Source: Planctomycetota bacterium (GTDB taxonomy: Bacteria; Planctomycetota; Phycisphaerae; UBA1845; UTPLA1). Taken from it: a stretch of 64,000 nt of DNA. Positions 17,018 through 24,737 of the stretch are shown here, piece by piece. Below the pieces are notes generated by a model. That model made no database searches, was not told where the DNA came from, and was given only the letters and a program-made list of their open reading frames with translations. Made by a program: the position numbers and the translations under genes. The stretch's first letter is position 1, and every line of letters starts with the position of its first letter. Location: contig JAATGM010000032.1 in NCBI GenBank assembly GCA_015654675.1, forward strand, positions 62,001-126,000. The letters are read 5' to 3'.

Positions 17018-17170
17018 GTTGGTAAGCACCCCGCCTCTGGTGCGCCACCGCCCGGACAGGGCTGCCGCATGGGTTGCCGGCGCTTCCCGCACGCCTGGCA
17101 GATCAATTTCCTCGCAGCGAGCCGTCGTCGTTTCGGCGGCGAGATGATTCGCCGATAGATGTGTACTAGT

Positions 17171-17198
17171 GTGCCCGGTCCCCGCCGGCTCCGGGCAC
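17171..17198 (+). promoter_or_regulatory. Leader hairpin directly upstream of the ribosome-binding site
   Basis: GTGCCCGG (17171-17178) and CCGGGCAC (17191-17198) form a perfect 8-bp stem with a 12-nt loop. The stem ends where the GGAG Shine-Dalgarno (about 17200) begins, 10 nt before the ATG at 17210, so it could mRNA-stabilise or modulate initiation. Confidence 0.4.
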
Positions 17199-17209
17199 GG
17201 AGACGGGAT

Positions 17210-20005
17210 ATGCTCATTCGCTCGTTTCGTCGGTTTCAACTGACTTGCACCTTCGTCGCCGCCGCGGCGCTGGCCCTCACGGCCACCGGCTGCGGGACGT
17301 TTCCATTTGGAGCGTCGATCACGGCGACTCAGCAGACCGACGAGCCCAACTTCACGGTCGACTTCGTCTTGAACGGCGTCAACAACTCCAGCGTCAGCAG
17401 TGTGAACTGGCTGTTTGGCGACGGACCTGGGTTCACGGCCGGCGGCACCACGATCAGCCATCAGTACGCAGCAGGTGGGACGTACACGATCAAGGCGTAT
17501 GTCTTCATCACCGGCGGCAGCACCCAGACCGTGAACGGCACGGCCACAGTCGTCGTTCCGGACAAGGCAACCAACCCGAATCCCAGCAATGGGGCGACCA
17601 ACGTTTCCGTGACGACCGCGTTCTCGTGGTTCGCGGGCAGCGGGGCTACTTCAAGCGACGTCTATCTGGGCACGAGCAGCGCTTCGGTCGCTTCGGCCAC
17701 GCAGCTTTCGCCCGAGTTCCAGGGCAACGTCACGGGCACTACGTTCAACCCGAACGGGCTTCAGGGCGGAACGGTCTATTTCTGGCGCATCGACTCGGTG
17801 AAGTCGGGCACGACCACCAAGGGCGATGTCTGGTCATTCACGACCGCGCAGCCGCCGGGCCAGGCGTCTGATCCGCAACCGGCGACGGGCTCGACTGGCA
17901 ACACCGTCACCGCGACGCTTTCGTGGACGGCGGGCGGATTCACCAGTTCGCACAACGTCTATTTTGGAACCGACCAGAACGCCGTCGAAAACGCGACGCA
18001 GAGTTCAGGCGAGTTCCGCGGTAACCAGACCACCACGACGTTCAATCCTGGGGCGCTGACGGCCGCCACGACCTATTACTGGCGAATCGACGAAGTCGGA
18101 ACCGGCGGCACGACCAAGGGGGCCGTCTGGTCATTCACGACTTCGGCATTACCCAGCAAGGCCACCAACCCCGACCCGGCCGACACGGCGACCGACGAGG
18201 AAGTGTCCACCGCGCTGTCGTGGACGGCAGGCAGCGACACGACTTCGCACAACTTCTACTTCGGTACGTCGCAGACGGCCGTGAACGCGGCGACGACTTC
18301 GAGTCCCGAGTTCAAGGGCAACCAGACGGCCACGACGACGCAGCCGGCGGGCACGGGCAACCTGAACGCCAACACGACGTACTTCTGGCGAATCGACGAA
18401 TCCGGCCCGGGCGGAATCACGAAGGGCGACGTTTGGTCCTTCGTCACCGCATCGCTGCCCGGCCAGACGACGCAGCCGTCTCCGGAAATCGGCCAGCAGG
18501 GCATCGATCTGAGCCCGACGCTTTCGTGGTCGGCCAGCAGCGCGAGCGGAGTGGGACCGACAGCGTCGTACGACGTCTATTTCGGAACCAGCTCATCGGC
18601 CGTGAACTCGGCGACGCGCGGCAGTCCGGAGTTCAAGGGCAACCAGGCCGGCACGACCTTCAGCCCGACTGGTCCGCTGGCGGAGAACACCGCATTCTTC
18701 TGGCGCGTTGACGCGGTCGGACCGGGCGGGACGACCAAGGGCGCGTTGTTCAGCTTTACGACGCTCAATTCGCTGGCGGCTTCCAATCCGGTTCCGGCGA
18801 ATCAGGCGACCGACATTCCGCTTGCGCAAGTGCTTGCCTGGGCGGCGGGCACGTGCGCCGGGACTCTGACGCATGACGTTTATCTGGGCACAAGCCAGTC
18901 GGCGGTCTTATCCGCAACGACGTCGTCGCCTGAGTTCCAGGGCAACTTCCCGGCGCTTACGTTCGATCCGCCGGGCGACCTGAACTCGAACACGCAGTAC
19001 TTCTGGCGCATCGACGAAGTGTGCGACACAACGACTACCAAGGGCGTCGTCTGGTCGTTCACGACGGTTGTCGTGCCACCGGGACAGATTACGAGTCCCA
19101 ACCCGACCGACGGAGCCACGGACGTGGCGCTGAATGCCACGTTGAGCTGGACGGCCGGTTCGGGCGCGACGAGCCATGATCGCTACTTCGGGACCGACCA
19201 GACGGCGGTTCAGAACGCCACGACGGCCAGCCCGGAGTTCAAGGGCAATACGCCCAATCCGACGTACAACCCCGGCGCGTTGACCGCCAGCACGACCTAT
19301 TACTGGCGCATCGACGAGAAGAACTCGGCCGGGACGACGACCGGTACGCTCACGTCATTCACGACTGTTCCGGCGGCTTCGGCCAAGGCGACTAACCCCG
19401 CCCCGGGCAACGCGGCGACCGGGCAGAACGTGAACACGACGGGTTACTCGGAGATCGCGCTGTCGCTGAGTTGGACGGCCGGGGCCGGGGCGACTTCGCA
19501 CGACGTCTACTTCGGGACGAACCAGACCGCGGTGACGAATGCGACGCCGGCGACGGCCGGGATCTTCAAGGGCAACCAGGCGGGCACGACTTTTGACCCT
19601 GGGGCGTTGACGGCCGGGACGCAGTATTTCTGGCGAATCGACGAGAAGAACTCGGGCGGCACCACGAAGGGCGACGTCTGGAGCTTCACGACGTTCACGC
19701 CGGCGCCGGGGTTGATCAGCAATCCGAATCCGCCGAATGCGGGGACGGTAGCGAGTACCTCGCCGACGCTCACGTGGACGGCTTCGACCGATTCGACGTT
19801 CTATGACGTGTACTTCGGGACGAACCAGACCAACGTCCAGAACGCGACGCGATCGAGCGGCGAGTTCATCCAGACGCAATCGTCGGCCACCAACAACTAT
19901 GCGACGGGTACGCTGACCGCGGCGACCATCTACTTCTGGCGGATCGACACGATCGGTCCGGGCGGAGTGACGAAGGGGGTCGTGCGTCAGTTTTCGACGC
20001 CGTAA
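17210..20005 (+). CDS. Large lipoprotein with eight FN3-like repeats
   Basis: A 931-residue predicted lipoprotein. The ATG at 17210 gives a signal peptide ending LALTATGC (Cys28), the lipobox. After a PKD-like Ig domain (about 30-120, GGTYTIKAYVF) come eight near-identical repeats of roughly 95-110 residues, each with a DVYFGT strand, a YFWRIDE strand and a TKGDVWSFTT end, which look like fibronectin type III-type beta sandwiches. No enzyme domain is seen, so it is probably a surface structural or adhesive protein. An in-frame ATG upstream at 17159 would disrupt the signal peptide. It is followed by a strong rho-independent terminator and starts just after plsY. Confidence 0.82.
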   Translation: MLIRSFRRFQLTCTFVAAAALALTATGCGTFPFGASITATQQTDEPNFTVDFVLNGVNNSSVSSVNWLFGDGPGFTAGGTTISHQYAAGGTYTIKAYVFITGGSTQTVNGTATVVVPDKATNPNPSNGATNVSVTTAFSWFAGSGATSSDVYLGTSSASVASATQLSPEFQGNVTGTTFNPNGLQGGTVYFWRIDSVKSGTTTKGDVWSFTTAQPPGQASDPQPATGSTGNTVTATLSWTAGGFTSSHNVYFGTDQNAVENATQSSGEFRGNQTTTTFNPGALTAATTYYWRIDEVGTGGTTKGAVWSFTTSALPSKATNPDPADTATDEEVSTALSWTAGSDTTSHNFYFGTSQTAVNAATTSSPEFKGNQTATTTQPAGTGNLNANTTYFWRIDESGPGGITKGDVWSFVTASLPGQTTQPSPEIGQQGIDLSPTLSWSASSASGVGPTASYDVYFGTSSSAVNSATRGSPEFKGNQAGTTFSPTGPLAENTAFFWRVDAVGPGGTTKGALFSFTTLNSLAASNPVPANQATDIPLAQVLAWAAGTCAGTLTHDVYLGTSQSAVLSATTSSPEFQGNFPALTFDPPGDLNSNTQYFWRIDEVCDTTTTKGVVWSFTTVVVPPGQITSPNPTDGATDVALNATLSWTAGSGATSHDRYFGTDQTAVQNATTASPEFKGNTPNPTYNPGALTASTTYYWRIDEKNSAGTTTGTLTSFTTVPAASAKATNPAPGNAATGQNVNTTGYSEIALSLSWTAGAGATSHDVYFGTNQTAVTNATPATAGIFKGNQAGTTFDPGALTAGTQYFWRIDEKNSGGTTKGDVWSFTTFTPAPGLISNPNPPNAGTVASTSPTLTWTASTDSTFYDVYFGTNQTNVQNATRSSGEFIQTQSSATNNYATGTLTAATIYFWRIDTIGPGGVTKGVVRQFSTP

Positions 20006-20041
20006 GGCAGAGTCAGGCCAGCGGCGATTGAGCGAAGTTCA

Positions 20042-20086
20042 AGCCCCGACGATCGGCGATGAGCCGGTGGTCGGGGCTTTTCATTT
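20042..20086 (+). terminator. Rho-independent terminator of the FN3-like lipoprotein gene
   Basis: AAGCCCCGAC (20042-20051) pairs with GTCGGGGCTT (20071-20080), enclosing a second small stem CGGC/GCCG, and is followed by a T-rich TTCATTTC. It lies 37 bp after the stop at 20005. Confidence 0.8.
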
Positions 20087-20159
20087 CGGAGCGGTCCGAA
20101 GTTTGGAATGGGTTCGAGGATGGAGATGGCCGCGCGAGAATGCCCAGGGGGTGACAACT

Positions 20160-20550
20160 GCCCGGTGATAAAAGTGATAATTGGTTATCGGGTCGGGCGT
20201 CGTGGGATTGGTGGGATTCCATCGGATGTCGGGAGTCGGAATTCAAATCCCGCCGCCGCAGTATGTTAGTACTTTGTCAGGATCGGCCCGCGTCCGCGTC
20301 GCCTGAGATTGGTGAGACGCGGGTGACATTGTCAGCGCGAGCCTGGTGATAATTCGCTCACGCCGCCGGGGTGCTTCACTTTTCAAAGAGCCATTTATCG
20401 ATCCGATTATCGATCGATTTACTCGGGCGGGGAATCGGCGCTCGCCCGCGGATCGGATGATTGCGCATCGAAGCCCCGGATCGCTCTCCATGTTAGGAGC
20501 GAGTTCGTATGGTGTTTAGTCGTCCGTGTTGCGAAGTCAAGGCGGCGATT
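20160..20550 (+). repeat. Upstream block of a duplicated locus, copy A (before the acyl-CoA dehydrogenase)
   Basis: Four short blocks here recur, in the same order, in copy B: GGTGATAAAAGTGATAAT (20164-20181), TTCACTTTTCAAAGAGC (20375-20391), CGGGCGGGGAATCGGCGC (20424-20441), and TGTTTAGTC plus AGTCAAGG (20513-20542) with the same 14-bp offset between the last two in both copies. Each differs from copy B by at most one base. No gene is seen in this 390-bp stretch. Confidence 0.6.
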
Positions 20551-20626
20551 CAGGAATTCATGGAGCAGTCCGGGCTCGGGGCCGGTTGGCTGCGCACGGG
20601 TGGGCTGGCGCGTACAATCGGGCCGC

Positions 20627-21682
20627 ATGTTGACCCTTGAAGAATTGACGCGGCGGCTGGCGGTTGAGGCGGATCGGCTGGATGGGTCGTTTGACTGGCC
20701 GGTCGATGGACTGGCGGCACTGGCCGAGGCGGGGGCCGATCGGTGGGTGATTCCGCGGGCGTATGGGGGCGACGAGTTGCCACCGGAGAAGATCCTGGAG
20801 GGGTATGAGGCGGTCGGGCGCGGCAGTCTGGCGGTGATCCTGATTCTGACGCAGCGCGATGGGGCCTGCGATCTGCTCAGCAGTTGCCCGAACGAGGCGG
20901 CGAAGCGGGCCTGGTTGCCGCGGCTGGCGGCCGGGCAGGCATTTACGACGGTGGGGATATCGCAGGTCACGACTTCGCACCAGGAGGGGCCGCCGGTGCT
21001 GACGGCGACGCCGGAGGGCGATGGGGGCTATGTGCTGCGCGGGTTCATGCCGTGGGCGACGGGGGCGGACCGGAGCGACTTCATCGTGACGGCGGCGGTG
21101 CTGCCGGACGGGCGGCAGATACTCGCGGCGGTGGAGCGCGAGGCGGGCGGGCTGCGGGTCGAGCCCCCGATGGCGTTCATGGCGTTGCAGTGCGCGCGGA
21201 CGAGCCGGGTGGTGTGCGAGGATGTGCGGATCGATGGGCGGCATGTGCTGTGCGAGCCGCGCGCGAAGGCGCTGGCGACGCGGTCGACGGTGAAGCCGAT
21301 GGTGGTTTCTTCGGCCGGTCTGGGGCTGGCGGGGGCGCTGCTGGACGAGATTGACGGGCTGGCCGGTCGGTCGCCGGCGGAGCTTAACGCGGCGGTTGGG
21401 CCGCTGCGGGCGATGTACGGGGACGTGCGCGAGCGGCTGTACGGGGCGGCGCGGGCGATGGGGGCGCGCGGGGCGGAGTCGCCGTCGAGCGAGCTGCGGG
21501 TGGCGGTGAACGAGGTGGTGATCAAACTGGCGGTGGCGGCGATGACGTTTGCAAAGGGGACGGGGTATGTGATGGGGCATCGGGCGCAGCGGCTGGTTCG
21601 GGAGGCAATGTTTTTTCTGGTGTGGTCGGCACCGGATGAGATTCGGGTGGAGACGCTTTCGCGGCTGGTGGGGGCGGCGTGA
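20627..21682 (+). CDS. Acyl-CoA dehydrogenase family protein
   Basis: FAD-dependent flavoprotein of 351 residues from ATG 20627 (an in-frame GTG at 20600 is less likely). N-terminal helical domain contains WVIPRAYGGDELPPEKILEG and the CoA-side segment RGFMPWATGAD; a beta domain with a VDxGxTRV-like region (RTSRVVCEDVRIDG) and a C-terminal four-helix part ending GYVMGHRAQRLVREAMFFLV follow. The catalytic Glu/Asp is not identifiable with confidence, and the protein is shorter than typical acyl-CoA dehydrogenases (about 380-400), so it may act on an unusual substrate or be an oxidoreductase of another role. The base composition is extremely G-rich on the coding strand. Confidence 0.72.
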   Translation: MLTLEELTRRLAVEADRLDGSFDWPVDGLAALAEAGADRWVIPRAYGGDELPPEKILEGYEAVGRGSLAVILILTQRDGACDLLSSCPNEAAKRAWLPRLAAGQAFTTVGISQVTTSHQEGPPVLTATPEGDGGYVLRGFMPWATGADRSDFIVTAAVLPDGRQILAAVEREAGGLRVEPPMAFMALQCARTSRVVCEDVRIDGRHVLCEPRAKALATRSTVKPMVVSSAGLGLAGALLDEIDGLAGRSPAELNAAVGPLRAMYGDVRERLYGAARAMGARGAESPSSELRVAVNEVVIKLAVAAMTFAKGTGYVMGHRAQRLVREAMFFLVWSAPDEIRVETLSRLVGAA

Positions 21683-22170
21683 GATTGTTGAGACGCCGTG
21701 AGTGTCTGGTTTTGCTGGGGATGCGCGGTCGGGCGGGATTGATGGGACGATATTGGATGTCGGAAATCGGAAATGGGTTGGGGTGCGGCATTCGTTTCCT
21801 GTGACCCGATCCCGGCGACCGTCGGCCGCTCGCCCCCCTCCTTCGTGACGTGAGATTTGTGAGATTTGGGGTGGTCCGGTTTGTTTTGGCTTTGTTTGGT
21901 ACCCAGTCGCTGGGGCCGACAGGTGACAAAAGTGATAATCAACTCCTGTGCTTGGATTCACTTGTCAAAGAGCGGGCGGGGAGTCGGCGCGGGGCCGATT
22001 TTGGCCTTTTGCGCAGCTTTCATGCATTTGCCCCCGGCCGCCGACATTACGACCGGACTTGTTCGGTTATTGTTTAGTCACGATAGCGTGGACAGTCAAG
22101 GAGGATTTTGGCGGCGGAAAGCGGCTACCGATTAGCTGTTGGCTGATCGGCATTTGGATGTGAGAGTTTC
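21683..22170 (+). repeat. Intergenic block with copy B of the duplicated leader
   Basis: No gene seen. It holds GGTGACAAAAGTGATAAT (21922-21939), TTCACTTGTCAAAGAGC (21957-21973), CGGGCGGGGAGTCGGCGC (21973-21990), TGTTTAGTC (22071-22079) and AGTCAAGG (22093-22100), which repeat copy A with at most one mismatch per block. The spacers differ, showing deletions or insertions between the copies. It leads directly into a degraded copy of the acyl-CoA dehydrogenase end. Confidence 0.6.
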
Positions 22171-22318
22171 ATGACGCTTGTAAAGAGCGTGCGGGTACGT
22201 GATTGGGCATCGGGTTCGGCGGCGCGTACGGGAAGCGATGATTTTTCTGGTTTGGACTGCGCCGGATGAGATTCGGGTAGAGACGCTCTTGCGGGTAATA
22301 GAGGGGAGTGTAGATTGA
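22171..22318 (+). pseudogene. Remnant of a second acyl-CoA dehydrogenase gene (3' end only)
   Basis: This stretch aligns along its length with the last 140 bases of the intact gene at 21542-21682. Shared runs include TTTTTCTGG and CCGGATGAGATTCGGGT. A single-base indel early in the alignment breaks the frame, so only the final part still reads FLVWTAPDEIRVETLL before a TGA. With the upstream leader repeat, it is best read as what remains of a tandem duplicate whose coding region was deleted. Confidence 0.7.
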
Positions 22319-22390
22319 CTCGGGCGGGCTGGCAGTTGCAGTGCGACCACAAAATCGCGACTGTCCGGCACAATTCTTGGAGCGATTTGC

Positions 22391-22975
22391 ATGAAGGACA
22401 AGAACAAGCCCGAACTCGATGTGCTTCGTACGATAATAGATGGGCTCACCCGGCTCGATGATGAATCCCGGGCACGGGTGATTCGAACAGTCGCAACATT
22501 TTTCGACCTGGACGGTCGCGCTCTCGGCGCAACAGAGATTTCCAGTGTAAGCGAGAGTGCCAATGCGAATTCGGAGCGGCCGCCGGCCGCGCGATTCTCG
22601 GGGCGACCAGATATGTCGCCGAAAGAGTTTCTATTCGTAAAGTCTCCCAGAACCGATATCGAGCGCGTCGCGTGTCTCGGATTTTATCTCACCCATTATC
22701 AGGCGCTCTCGGAATTTGGAACTGCGGAAATCTCCTCGCTCAATCTTGAGGGGGCCCAGCCGCGGTTCGCAAATACGGCGCAAGCCGTAAAAAATGCCAC
22801 GGCCCGTGGATTCCTCGCCCAGGCGTCCGGAGGCCGGAAACAGCTATCGGCGTTCGGAGAGCAGTACGTGCAGGCGTTACCGGATCGCGTCGCCGCGCAG
22901 GCCGTTTCCGATCGTGTAGTTCCGCGGAAGCGCCGTCCAACAGCGAAACTCAAGTTGCGACGACGGAAGAAGTGA
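22391..22975 (+). CDS. Small winged-helix-like protein, first gene of a ParA/RelA-type cassette
   Basis: A 194-residue protein I do not recognise by name. The N-terminal 45 residues are helical (LRTIIDGLTRLDDESRARVI), followed by a flexible linker, and a region about 76-170 (PKEFLFVKSPRTDIERVACL to QLSAFGEQYVQALPDR) looks like a helical, winged-helix-type DNA-binding or adaptor domain. The tail (172-194) is strongly basic, RKRRPTAKLKLRRRKK. GGAG lies 7 nt before the ATG at 22391. It is 9 bp from the ATPase gene downstream, so it is probably co-transcribed. Its base composition is clearly lower in GC than the genes upstream. Confidence 0.7.
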   Translation: MKDKNKPELDVLRTIIDGLTRLDDESRARVIRTVATFFDLDGRALGATEISSVSESANANSERPPAARFSGRPDMSPKEFLFVKSPRTDIERVACLGFYLTHYQALSEFGTAEISSLNLEGAQPRFANTAQAVKNATARGFLAQASGGRKQLSAFGEQYVQALPDRVAAQAVSDRVVPRKRRPTAKLKLRRRKK

Positions 22976-22984
22976 GGGGAAGCT

Positions 22985-23995
22985 ATGGCAGCTGCGAGGC
23001 ATCGAGCTGTACGTTTAACGATCTATAACCACAAGGGCGGCGTTGGAAAGACAACTTTGACGGTGAACGTTGCCTTTGCCCTCGCTGCCCTAGGGAAGAA
23101 GGTTTTGCTTGTCGATTCCGATCCTCAGTGTAATTTGACTTCATATCTCTTTGATGATGATCACGTTGACGGATTCCTGGACAAATCCGATGGAACATCG
23201 GGAGAAACCATTTGGACCGCACTTCGTCCTGTATTTCATGGCAAGGGTCCGGTTCAATTGATCACGCCATATAAGGTCGGTGAAGGGCGCGTTTTCATTC
23301 TTCCGGGCGATATTAAGCTTTCTGAATATGAGCTGTTCTTGAGTGATACTTGGACAGAGTGTTTCAAGCGCCAAGAGCGCGGCTTCGGGGCTACGTCGGC
23401 ACTGAGCAATTTGGTAAATCACCTCGCTGCAAAGACCGGCGTCGATTTTGTTTTCTATGACACAGGCCCCAATATTGGCCCGCTAAATCGCGTGATTCTT
23501 CTCGATACCGACTTCTTTATTGTTCCGGCTGCGTGCGACCATTTTTCAGTTCGTGCGCTAAATACTCTCGGACAAACGCTCCACCGCTGGATACTCGATT
23601 GGCGGACAATTCGCGCACTCGCCCCGGACAGAACATATCTGATGCCCGGGCACCCACTCTATCTTGGATATATTCCCCAACGGTTTCGGATATATGGCCA
23701 TGGCATGTCAAGAGCGCATTCGTTCTACCTTCGCAACCTAGAAAAACGGCTATTTCGGGACATCGTCCTGGTCTTGAGGGAGCTTGATCCCCCTTGGTTC
23801 TCGACACGACTGAAGGGCTCAAAACTCGGTGAGGTGAAAGACTTTGGCAAACTCCTACATCAAGCTGAACTCGAAGGCGTGCCCTTGTTCGATGTCAGTG
23901 GCGGCGACAAAACACAAAAGACACAAGCTAAGGCGGCTCTGGATCAGATTGCAAAACAGATCAATGGACGATCGCGGGCTCTGAGAAGGGCATAG
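22985..23995 (+). CDS. ParA/MinD-type P-loop ATPase (cassette gene 2)
   Basis: A 336-residue ATPase. Deviant Walker A is KGGVGKTT (17-24), the Walker A' strand is KVLLVDSDPQCN (about 39-50), and a Walker B-like segment is FVFYDTGPNIG (about 155-165). An insert after Walker A' and a long C-terminal domain from about 215 onwards (FRIYGHGMSRAHSFYLRNLE) differ from plasmid partition ParA, and no ParB gene is next to it. A GAGGGG Shine-Dalgarno stands just before the ATG. It lies between the winged-helix gene and the alarmone synthetase with gaps of 9 and 1 bp. The fold is certain by motif; the role in the cassette is inference. Confidence 0.8.
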   Translation: MAAARHRAVRLTIYNHKGGVGKTTLTVNVAFALAALGKKVLLVDSDPQCNLTSYLFDDDHVDGFLDKSDGTSGETIWTALRPVFHGKGPVQLITPYKVGEGRVFILPGDIKLSEYELFLSDTWTECFKRQERGFGATSALSNLVNHLAAKTGVDFVFYDTGPNIGPLNRVILLDTDFFIVPAACDHFSVRALNTLGQTLHRWILDWRTIRALAPDRTYLMPGHPLYLGYIPQRFRIYGHGMSRAHSFYLRNLEKRLFRDIVLVLRELDPPWFSTRLKGSKLGEVKDFGKLLHQAELEGVPLFDVSGGDKTQKTQAKAALDQIAKQINGRSRALRRA

Positions 23996-23996
23996 A

Positions 23997-24737
23997 ATGG
24001 CCACCTTAGATCTCACGGCGAAGGATCGGAGGGAAATAGGCGCTGCGGTCCAGCGTTTTGTTGATGATCGTGATCAATTCGTGCTAACTGGGGAGAATCT
24101 CTCTAGGGCTATCAAGGCGGATGCCTCGCTAAAGAAGCAGATTCATTCTGTTCTGTTTCGCGTTAAAGACCCGCAACACCTGCGGCTAAAGCTTTCTCGA
24201 AAAGCAACTGACGCGAGAAAAGCGGGGAAACTGCCTGAGATTGACCGCGACAATCTCTATGAACAGATTGGAGACCTTGTCGGTGTGCGAATTCTCCATC
24301 TTCACCCGACGCAAATGCTGAGCATTCATCCAGCTTTGATCCGGTTGTTCAAAGAAAAGAAATACATCCCAGTCGAACCGCCACAAGCGAAGACATGGGA
24401 TGACGAATACAGAGAACTGTTTAAGCGAATCGGGCTTGAAGACCGACCGAACAAGCAGATGTACACAAGCATACATTACGTAGTTGAAGAGAATACCCAG
24501 GCAAAATTTCGATGCGAACTGCAAGTGCGGACGCTAATGGAAGAGGTATGGGGCGAGGTGTCGCATCGCATCGACTATCCTCGTAAGACAGCCAGCACGG
24601 CCTGCAAAGAGCAACTGCTTGTGCTCGCTCGCCTTGCTTCGAGTGGAATTCGTTTGGTTGATGCAATCTTTGCATCGCATCAGGAATACGCTCTTATGAA
24701 AAGGCGACGTCTCGCTTCGAAAAAGCGTGTTCGATGA
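23997..24737 (+). CDS. RelA/SpoT-type (p)ppGpp synthetase, cassette gene 3
   Basis: A 246-residue protein with the nucleotidyltransferase of RelA/SpoT alarmone synthetases and nothing else: no HD hydrolase, TGS or ACT domain. Catalytic signatures are RVKDPQHLRLKLSRK (Arg55, Lys57), IGDLVGVRIL (Asp93, Arg98), MYTSIHYVV (Tyr156, His160) and CELQVRTLMEEVWGEVSH (Glu174, Gln176, Arg178, His190). These keep the residues needed to transfer pyrophosphate to GTP or another acceptor. The start is 1 bp after the ATPase stop. It resembles small alarmone synthetases, including those that act as toxins, but its acceptor is unknown. Confidence 0.8.
   Translation: MATLDLTAKDRREIGAAVQRFVDDRDQFVLTGENLSRAIKADASLKKQIHSVLFRVKDPQHLRLKLSRKATDARKAGKLPEIDRDNLYEQIGDLVGVRILHLHPTQMLSIHPALIRLFKEKKYIPVEPPQAKTWDDEYRELFKRIGLEDRPNKQMYTSIHYVVEENTQAKFRCELQVRTLMEEVWGEVSHRIDYPRKTASTACKEQLLVLARLASSGIRLVDAIFASHQEYALMKRRRLASKKRVR

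What the first reader, a model, noticed from the sequence alone, without database searches (positions are those of the whole stretch)
20160..22318. Tandem duplication of a leader plus acyl-CoA dehydrogenase, second copy almost deleted
Four short blocks before the intact gene reappear in the same order before the remnant, with near-identical sequence and equal spacing of the last two blocks, and the remnant itself aligns to the last 140 bases of the gene. So a whole unit (leader + gene) was duplicated and the second gene was then deleted. The leader blocks, reading on the minus strand, contain a CTCTTTGA element similar to boxA-type signals.
Basis: seen in the sequence. Interest (0 to 1): 0.55.

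Follow-up and report, generated by a model that had tools for sequence, protein, structure and literature searches.

The report
Dispersed RNA elements at origin-like sites
The repeated blocks turned out to be two of about fifty copies of an undescribed RNA element in this bacterium, and the copies line up with sharp origin-like switches in DNA strand composition, which would fit a bacterial chromosome copied from many starting points instead of one.

Summary
The blocks exist, and the ACAD 3' remnant is real (99/124 bases, E 5e-27). But the "leader" is no private duplicate. Both copies belong to a dispersed minus-strand element: promoter-like boxes (TTGACT-N16/17-TAAACA), two covarying RNA stems, the boxA motif of the rRNA operons, C-rich tail motifs. 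The genome holds 49 covariance-model matches at E<=0.1 plus 4 decayed ones in the part rescanned. None were found in 113 other genomes of the order or 396 of the class (capped searches).

The two window copies share 52% identity, below the family mean of 62%, so joint duplication of leader and gene is not supported.

Unexpected: this genome has saw-tooth GC-skew domains, and element positions and orientations predict them on five contigs: R2 0.53 (13 copies) to 0.62 (19), reached by 0 of 1000 permutations in every scheme. At 7 of 8 sites chosen for a clear jump, skew rises 0.5-5 kb downstream of the element and fades over 60-80 kb upstream. A sampled relative shows ordinary low-amplitude skew.

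Best reading: the elements are, or mark, sites where DNA replication starts. Association shown; initiation and mechanism inferred.

The parts
20427..20540 (-). Element 1 core: promoter-like start (TTGACT 20540-20535, 16-nt spacer, TAAACA 20518-20513), hairpin, long stem
   Evidence: CM R1 91.6 bits; covariation over 41 copies; single-sequence fold of 20427-20505 z -2.17
20375..20391 (-). boxA of element 1 (GCTCTTTGAAAAGTGAA)
   Evidence: differs at 2 of 17 positions from the site before the 16S gene (L020)
20164..20319 (-). Tail motifs of element 1: GTCTCACCAATCTCA (20318-20304), M-like block (20241-20204), ATTATCACTTTTATCACC (20181-20164)
20630..21682 (+). Intact acyl-CoA-dehydrogenase-like gene, divergent from element 1
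   Evidence: Pfam Acyl-CoA_dh_N above its cut-off, Acyl-CoA_dh_M below its cut-off; 13 relatives with 40-49% identical near-full-length matches
21976..22099 (-). Element 2 core: promoter-like start (TTGACT 22099-22094, 17-nt spacer, TAAACA 22076-22071); outer stem poorly kept
   Evidence: CM R1 76.4 bits; single-sequence fold of 21976-22064 no better than shuffles (z 0.20)
21957..21973 (-). boxA of element 2 (GCTCTTTGACAAGTGAA)
21680..21939 (-). Tail motifs of element 2: ATTATCACTTTTGTCACC, AACCGGACC motif, AATCTCACAAATCTCA, TTCCGACATCCAATAT, GTCTCAACAATCTCA; the last overlaps the ACAD stop codon
22167..22318 (+). 3' remnant of a second ACAD gene
   Evidence: 99/124, E 5e-27; 64% over 42 aa, one stop
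18587..18870 (.). Upward GC-skew change-point (best estimate 18744), about 2 kb downstream of the two elements; skew at 4-fold sites -0.08 to its left, +0.58 to its right
   Evidence: C1:80744, bootstrap 80587-80870; window coordinate = C1 minus 62000

Best explanation
The blocks are two members of a lineage-restricted family of about 50 dispersed RNA elements. Each is a short transcription-like unit: promoter-like boxes, two conserved RNA stems, the rRNA-type boxA antitermination motif, then a G-poor tail of repeated motifs. The elements are, or mark, places where chromosomal DNA synthesis starts: forks leave a zone 0.5-5 kb downstream of the element, run back through it into its upstream side, and fade over about 60-80 kb, leaving the G-rich leading-strand signature there. 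Most likely mechanism (inferred): strong boxA-protected untranslated transcription opens the duplex (R-loop or supercoil driven), and a replisome is loaded in the opened zone. Shown: the family, the RNA fold, the boxA motif, absence from the genomes searched, the orientation bias, and the fit of skew to element position and orientation. Inferred: transcription, initiation, the loading mechanism, and why upstream forks dominate.
For: Family: 49 CM hits in the own genome at E<=0.1, 45 at E<=0.01. Fold: 35 both-side-changed cells v 7.1 shuffled, 0/500. boxA (up to 2 mismatches) in 30 of 41 copies, and at least one boxA or tail motif in 40 of 41, on the element's strand and downstream of the core; boxA-like sites: 29 in the own genome, two rRNA ones and one likely chance match included, v 0-3 in each of 30 relatives. 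Orientation: 39 of 41 copies have their sense strand on the C-rich strand; at 4-fold sites this holds for 78/80 co-directional and 28/35 opposite genes, so it is not a coding effect. Position: two-parameter decay model R2 0.62 with 19 copies, 0.58 with the 16 R1 copies, 0.53 with the 13 best; orientation flipped 0; 0 of 1000 in each of four permutation schemes for each set. Jump at 16 elements 0.223 v random 0.012 sd 0.060, 1 of 2000. 7 of 11 upward jumps lie within 5 kb of an element v 0 of 8 downward. Polarity: in G002 the main dnaA (2.22 Mb) lies between a negative tile (1.9 Mb) and the turn to positive (2.3 Mb), so G-rich is leading. G002, sampled over 400 kb, has ordinary low-amplitude skew.
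Against: No replication, coverage or RNA data. One incomplete assembly in 62 contigs; five contigs carry the position test. Some strongly skewed stretches have no known element near on the contig: C30:160-200k, C10:20-40k, C57:1-20k, C35:38-53k. Of 11 upward jumps, C1:151.6k and C50:79k lie 68 and 29 kb from any element, C28:41.4k 15 kb, C50:60.2k 10 kb. Upstream exceeds downstream skew in 13 of 16 copies only; C45:42675, C45:75070, C25:38266, C25:92927, C50:192790 and C28:26367 show little or no jump, and C25:119898 (3 kb of contig upstream) the reverse. A weak hit, C50:172175 + (E 0.023), would point the wrong way. Jump size is unrelated to copy score (rho -0.22, p 0.44). The own 16S gene lies on the C-rich strand. 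No enrichment of E. coli-type DnaA boxes or of A+T beside elements. The promoter boxes fail a strict sigma-70 scan. RNA-primed origins of the ColE1 kind would send forks downstream, not upstream (general knowledge). T-A skew follows only weakly (r 0.18). RNase HI is only weakly recognisable, but so it is in 12 of 20 relatives.
Confidence: 0.42

Rival explanations
1. Passive mobile element: an RNA-derived or other mobile element inserts in one orientation relative to the replication fork and near places where forks start; the many origin-like sites have some other cause.
For: Near-absolute orientation bias (39/41), also among high-scoring copies inside uniform skew plateaus that show no jump of their own; dispersed family with a wide range of scores.
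Against: Does not explain why the genome has skew domains of 50-100 kb at all, nor why positions plus orientations alone give R2 0.53-0.62. No mobilising gene was seen among 20 upstream ORFs; ends and target duplications were not searched for.
Confidence: 0.22
2. Chromosome rearrangement: a single-origin chromosome was cut up by many inversions, often at elements, which flips skew locally; or the assembly is misjoined at repeats.
For: Aberrant skew in assemblies can be a sign of misassembly at repeats or of rearrangement (passages of PMC7111523).
Against: Inversions give up and down steps alike; here upward steps are abrupt and near elements, downward ones gradual and not, and amplitude is several times that of the G002 sample. 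Copies are short and on average 62% identical in the core, poor substrates for misjoining.
Confidence: 0.12
3. Transcription-caused asymmetry: very long transcripts started near the elements mutate one strand.
For: boxA could allow long transcripts; decay with distance fits polymerase loss.
Against: Element transcription would run downstream, but the skew lies upstream; the effect holds for genes of both directions.
Confidence: 0.1
4. The elements are ordinary regulatory or non-coding RNA genes (rRNA-like, Nus-controlled) placed head-on to forks by selection; the link to skew jumps is indirect, for example through domain borders of the nucleoid.
For: Clear RNA fold and boxA; upstream neighbour co-directional in 24, opposite in 8, not called in 9 of 41.
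Against: Selection usually disfavours head-on strong transcription (general knowledge); does not predict the saw-tooth.
Confidence: 0.12

Closest known systems
rRNA operon leader boxA / Nus antitermination (also suhB leader; passages of PMC5725501)
   Same: Same boxA motif as before this genome's own 16S and 23S genes; hairpin before boxA; no conserved reading frame
   Different: Some 50 dispersed copies, no rRNA downstream, own conserved stems and tail motifs
DnaA-independent multi-origin replication of some cyanobacteria (passages of PMC7198777)
   Same: Bacterial chromosome with unusual skew and more than one start site
   Different: The passages I saw speak of irregular skew and mention no repeat family at the starts; here the skew is strong and tied to one element family
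Human skew N-domains (passages of PMC3320577)
   Same: Abrupt upward skew jumps and gradual decline between them, read as fixed start zones and spread-out termination
   Different: Bacterium; about 100 kb scale against megabases; one-sided decay; sequence-defined element
R-loop (oriK) replication in RNase H mutants of E. coli (search listing only, e.g. PMC7045392)
   Same: Transcription-driven starts outside oriC would fit
   Different: There a mutant state; no dispersed element family known to me; RNase H test here not discriminating
Dispersed intergenic repeats of bacteria such as BOX, Correia, REP (recalled)
   Same: Short, intergenic, many copies, structured
   Different: boxA present, one-strand modular anatomy, orientation tied to skew; terminal repeats not tested

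Membership tests
   3' remnant 80% identical
   52% identity, lowest of element 1's 40 pairings
boxA / Nus antitermination signal | Match to the boxA of the genome's own rRNA operons | tested here: met
   L020 and L027 v elements; within 2 mismatches in 30 of 41 copies
boxA / Nus antitermination signal | Binds NusB-S10 and changes termination | not testable with these tools
   needs binding or reporter assay
Structured RNA family | Compensatory base changes among divergent copies | tested here: met
   35 v 7.1 cells, 9 v 4.2 pairs, 0/500; the alignment was fitted to the model, which favours the structure
Known Rfam family | Reaches a gathering score | tested here: not met
   0 matches in 11 loci; best in window 19900-22500 21.8 of 56.8 bits
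Replication origin (skew definition) | Upward GC-skew switch at the site, leading strand G-rich | tested here: met
   As a family; not at every copy
Replication origin (functional definition) | Local maximum of copy number or nascent strands | not testable with these tools
   no reads available
DnaA-type oriC | Cluster of DnaA boxes | tested here: not met
   TTATCCACA with up to 1 mismatch: 0.061 per kb downstream, 0.079 upstream, 0.067 overall; E. coli consensus only
Miniature inverted-repeat or IS-derived element | Terminal inverted repeats and target duplications | not tested
   not searched systematically; k-mer sharing on the opposite strand is 1% or less

The most novel reading that the evidence does not exclude
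A bacterium has replaced or supplemented its single origin by some 50 dispersed RNA-gene origins that spread as a family, each sending forks in one direction, so that its chromosome is replicated and mutationally patterned like a eukaryotic one.
Probability: 0.33. Interest if true: 0.97.

Novelty: categorically new. Interest (0 to 1): 0.85.

Why it matters
Whether bacterial chromosomes can naturally use many origins was called an open question in 2015 (PMC4403523, part 1 of its text read) and multiple starts have since been reported for some cyanobacteria (PMC7198777), without a sequence element in the passages I saw. Here a sequence-defined element predicts, from position and orientation alone, more than half of the variance in strand asymmetry over 1.1 Mb of a bacterial genome. 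That turns the question into simple tests (read depth, long reads, sister species) and would give origins that spread like a repeat family, an evolutionary route to multi-origin chromosomes. Even if the elements are passive, they would be a fork-oriented RNA element family unlike any I know.

Tried and rejected
Rfam: nothing at gathering. Coding reading of the blocks: rejected because the gap between the stem and boxA takes values such as 0, 2, 9, 10, 12, 33, 35, 48 and 57 bases in different copies. Leader of a fixed downstream gene: downstream neighbour co-directional in 24, opposite in 16, none called in 1 of 41. Autonomous gene upstream: 20 upstream ORFs are unrelated apart from the C62/C5 pair and weak or short C-terminal similarity among a few surface proteins. 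Loss of RNase HI as the cause: own genome has one weak 36-bit match, but 12 of 20 relatives including G002 also have only a weak one, 7 a strong one, 1 none. Older copies give larger jumps: not supported (rho -0.22, p 0.44, 15 copies). C-rich tail as Rho site: weak, because the flanks are nearly as C-rich. DnaA boxes: no enrichment. Orientation control with a second hairpin repeat: only 3 hits, useless. Exact-pattern scans: 0 in GTDB r220 contigs and 0 in IMG/VR (first pattern only); that pattern fits only 18 of 41 own copies, and the tool may leave out records near the own genome.

Rows dropped: of 30 boxA hits, L020 and L027 are rRNA leaders, L024 looks like chance, L004 is cut by a contig end. 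The 41-copy set leaves out the 8 R1 hits whose flanks I had not fetched then. In one search three isolated motif matches break the plan: an opposite-strand boxA-like site at +1399 of C51:7971, and single AACCGGACC-type matches at -963 of C37:62224 and +3321 of C28:58530; C39:23462 has no motif at all. In the skew model, 3 of 19 copies (C1:31925, C45:181901, C28:1637) came from the second model after the skew had been seen; results without them are given. The weak hit C50:172175 + was left out of the model. The profile uses 16 copies (C25:119898, C50:192790 and C28:1637 left out); the 8 sites were picked because they show a jump. L115 was fetched by mistake and not used.

Full report
OBSERVATION. 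The four blocks and the ACAD remnant are present as described. Two of the blocks were tested against shuffles of the window (0.01 and 0.04 expected, 2 found each). The remnant aligns at 99 of 124 bases to the 3' end of the gene (E 5e-27) and reads at 64% over 42 residues with one stop.

THE BLOCKS ARE A GENOME-WIDE FAMILY. TTCACTTNTCAAAGAGC has 30 hits in the own genome with up to 2 mismatches, against 2 for the reversed control. Read on the other strand it is GNTCTTTGANAAGTGAA. Two of the 30 are the sites before the genome's own 16S and 23S genes (L020, L027, recognised by eye) and one looks like chance (L024); the others share a common plan: TTGACT, a spacer (16 and 17 nt in the window copies), TAAACA, then CCGAAC, a GCTCCC/GGGAGC hairpin, a long stem (CGGGG/CCCCG enclosing GCGC/GCGC), a variable gap, boxA, and tail motifs (ATTATCACTTTTATCACC, AACCGGACCGCCCCAA, AATCTCANNAATCTCA, TTCCGACATCCAATAT). 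In 41 copies boxA with up to 2 mismatches is found in 30, some boxA or tail motif in 40, on the element's strand and downstream of the core; three isolated matches elsewhere are listed under Tried and rejected. A covariance model from 16 copies finds 49 matches at E<=0.1 in the own genome, 130 to 22 bits, 45 of them at E<=0.01. Window copies: 20427-20540 (91.6 bits) and 21976-22099 (76.4 bits), both minus strand.

RNA STRUCTURE. On 41 aligned copies, 90.6% of cells pair (84.6% shuffled), 35 cells have both sides changed (7.1 shuffled) and 0 of 500 shuffles reach the observed value of any of the five measures. The alignment was made with the model, which leans to the structure, but slid controls are far lower. 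TTGACT and AAACA are nearly invariant while the spacer is about 50% identical. A strict sigma-70 scan finds no promoter in 20000-22400, so the promoter is inferred from conservation. Element 2 does not fold better than shuffles on its own, element 1 does (z 0.20 and -2.17).

RESTRICTION. 0 of 40 relatives, 0 of 113 other genomes of the order, 0 of 396 others of the class. These searches use strict filters and score a capped number of candidates per genome (87, 31 and 9, so that one search shows only 9 copies even in the own genome); a genome with only a few weak copies could be missed. boxA-like sites: 29 in the own genome, 0-3 in each of 30 relatives. Exact-pattern scans: none in GTDB r220 contigs or, for the first pattern, IMG/VR. 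Rfam: none at gathering. No genome of the same genus is among the relatives listed.

NOT A JOINT DUPLICATION. Over the core, elements 1 and 2 are 52% identical; all-pairs mean 62%; element 2 is the last of element 1's 40 relatives. The gene remnant keeps 80%. So the gene tail was duplicated, but the two leaders look like independent members. The element points away from ACAD.

ORIENTATION. The flanks (30 bases upstream and 800 downstream of the start excluded) have C>G on the element's sense strand at 39 of 41 copies; the other two are at -0.003 and -0.013. At four-fold degenerate sites of neighbouring genes the sense strand is C-rich in 78 of 80 co-directional and 28 of 35 opposite genes, so this is a strand-wide asymmetry, not a coding effect. 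Copies on one contig share flanks, so the 41 are not fully independent.

SAW-TOOTH SKEW. On five contigs (C28, C45, C25, C1, C50; 1.1 Mb) skew at four-fold sites forms domains with abrupt upward and mostly gradual downward changes, reaching 0.4-0.8. Examples: C1 about 0 to +0.82 at the two window elements, back to about 0.1 forty kb on; C50:146768 -0.17 to +0.71; C28:288347 -0.59 to about +0.1. In G002, a complete genome of the same family sampled in 20 tiles (400 kb of 3.9 Mb), skew is low (mostly within 0.3), mostly negative over 0.4-1.9 Mb and mostly positive over 2.3-3.8 Mb, with no strong domains in 200 kb of contiguous sequence; its main dnaA at 2.22 Mb lies in the unsampled interval in which the sign turns (a second DnaA-like gene is at 1.28 Mb), so the G-rich strand is taken as leading. 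In G000, rpoB and 23S lie on the G-rich strand, 16S does not. Genes in strongly skewed surroundings lie 56% by length and 53% by number on the G-rich strand.

LINK TO ELEMENTS. 16 copies: sense C-skew 0.51 upstream, 0.29 downstream, upstream larger in 13; jump 0.223 against random 0.012 (sd 0.060; 1 of 2000 reach it) and orientation-matched random 0.010 (2 of 2000). Average profile: 0.5-0.6 just upstream, about 0.3 at 60 kb upstream, 0.39 at 0-5 and 0.16 at 5-10 kb downstream, about 0 from 30 kb downstream. Of 11 upward jumps of at least 0.3, 7 lie within 5 kb of an element (two of these elements come from the second model); of 8 downward ones, none. Change-points at 8 sites chosen for a visible jump: 7 lie 0.5-5.0 kb downstream of the promoter-like start, one has a wide interval that includes the element. 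A model in which each copy emits skew into its upstream side with exponential decay explains 62% of the variance (19 copies, 60 kb), 58% with the 16 R1 copies and 53% with the 13 best (80 kb, 428 bins); none with flipped orientation; in four permutation schemes of 1000 each, for each set, none reaches the observed value. A model rebuilt from 41 copies found decayed copies with the expected orientation at two jumps that had none in the first list: C1:31925 + and C45:181901 -; tail motifs at both were already visible. Outside the five contigs, tiles of C61 and C35:18-34k fit the model, others below do not.

AGAINST. Strong skew without a known element near on the contig at C30:160-200k, C10:20-40k, C57:1-20k, C35:38-53k. 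Four of 11 upward jumps are 10 to 68 kb from the nearest element. Six copies inside plateaus show little or no jump of their own and one the reverse. One weak hit points the wrong way (C50:172175). No relation of jump to copy score. T-A skew weakly related (r 0.18). No DnaA-box or A+T enrichment. One draft assembly.

MECHANISM. Upward switches with a G-rich leading strand mean forks leave the site; the one-sided profile means they mostly run into the element's upstream side, from a zone slightly downstream. I propose that rRNA-like, boxA-protected transcription from the element opens that zone and that replisomes load there. Transcription, R-loops, loading and the dominance of upstream forks are inferred; a ColE1-like RNA primer would predict the opposite direction. 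The main rival is a passive element inserted in a fork-dependent orientation near origin-like sites of other cause.

LITERATURE. Passages read: PMC7198777 (cyanobacteria, multiple origins and irregular skew), PMC7111523 (skew as assembly check), PMC5725501 (boxA and Nus), PMC3320577 (human N-domains); part 1 of the text of PMC4403523. Others only as search listings. I saw no report of a dispersed boxA element family or of an element family tied to bacterial skew domains in the listings of these eight searches, which showed at most 10-20 titles each; subscription papers and preprints were not searched.

Noticed in passing
G000 C62:82088-84000 and C5:189500-191399 (L092, L096): A large repetitive surface protein gene (C-terminus looks dockerin-like, recalled) and the element behind it are duplicated together (element 93%, 964 bases of upstream gene 92% identical): a joint duplication of gene and element.
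   Followed up: partly
about 100 bases upstream of copies on C60, C14, C61, C37, C51, C48, C28: A second dispersed hairpin repeat, CTCCCTGGATAGGGAG..GGTGAGGGTCGAATTCGC, sits next to several elements; only 3 hits in 1.1 Mb at 3 mismatches.
   Followed up: partly
window 22391-24737: Gene trio beside the remnant: an ORF without Pfam match, a ParA-type ATPase and a RelA/SpoT-domain protein; possibly a defence or mobile cassette.
   Followed up: no
G000 C10:31943 and C11:133030; six relatives: The own genome and each of the six relatives searched carry two DnaA-like genes; no E. coli-type DnaA-box cluster in C10:20000-39999 around the better-scoring one in G000.
   Followed up: partly
window 21680-21695 and L093 (C51:7971 copy): In two clear cases the last tail motif of the element overlaps the stop codon of the convergent neighbouring gene, its TGA being part of the motif.
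   Followed up: no
window 17159-20005: 948-aa repetitive protein with Ig-like and purple-acid-phosphatase-N-type Pfam matches; the upward skew change-point falls inside this gene.
   Followed up: no
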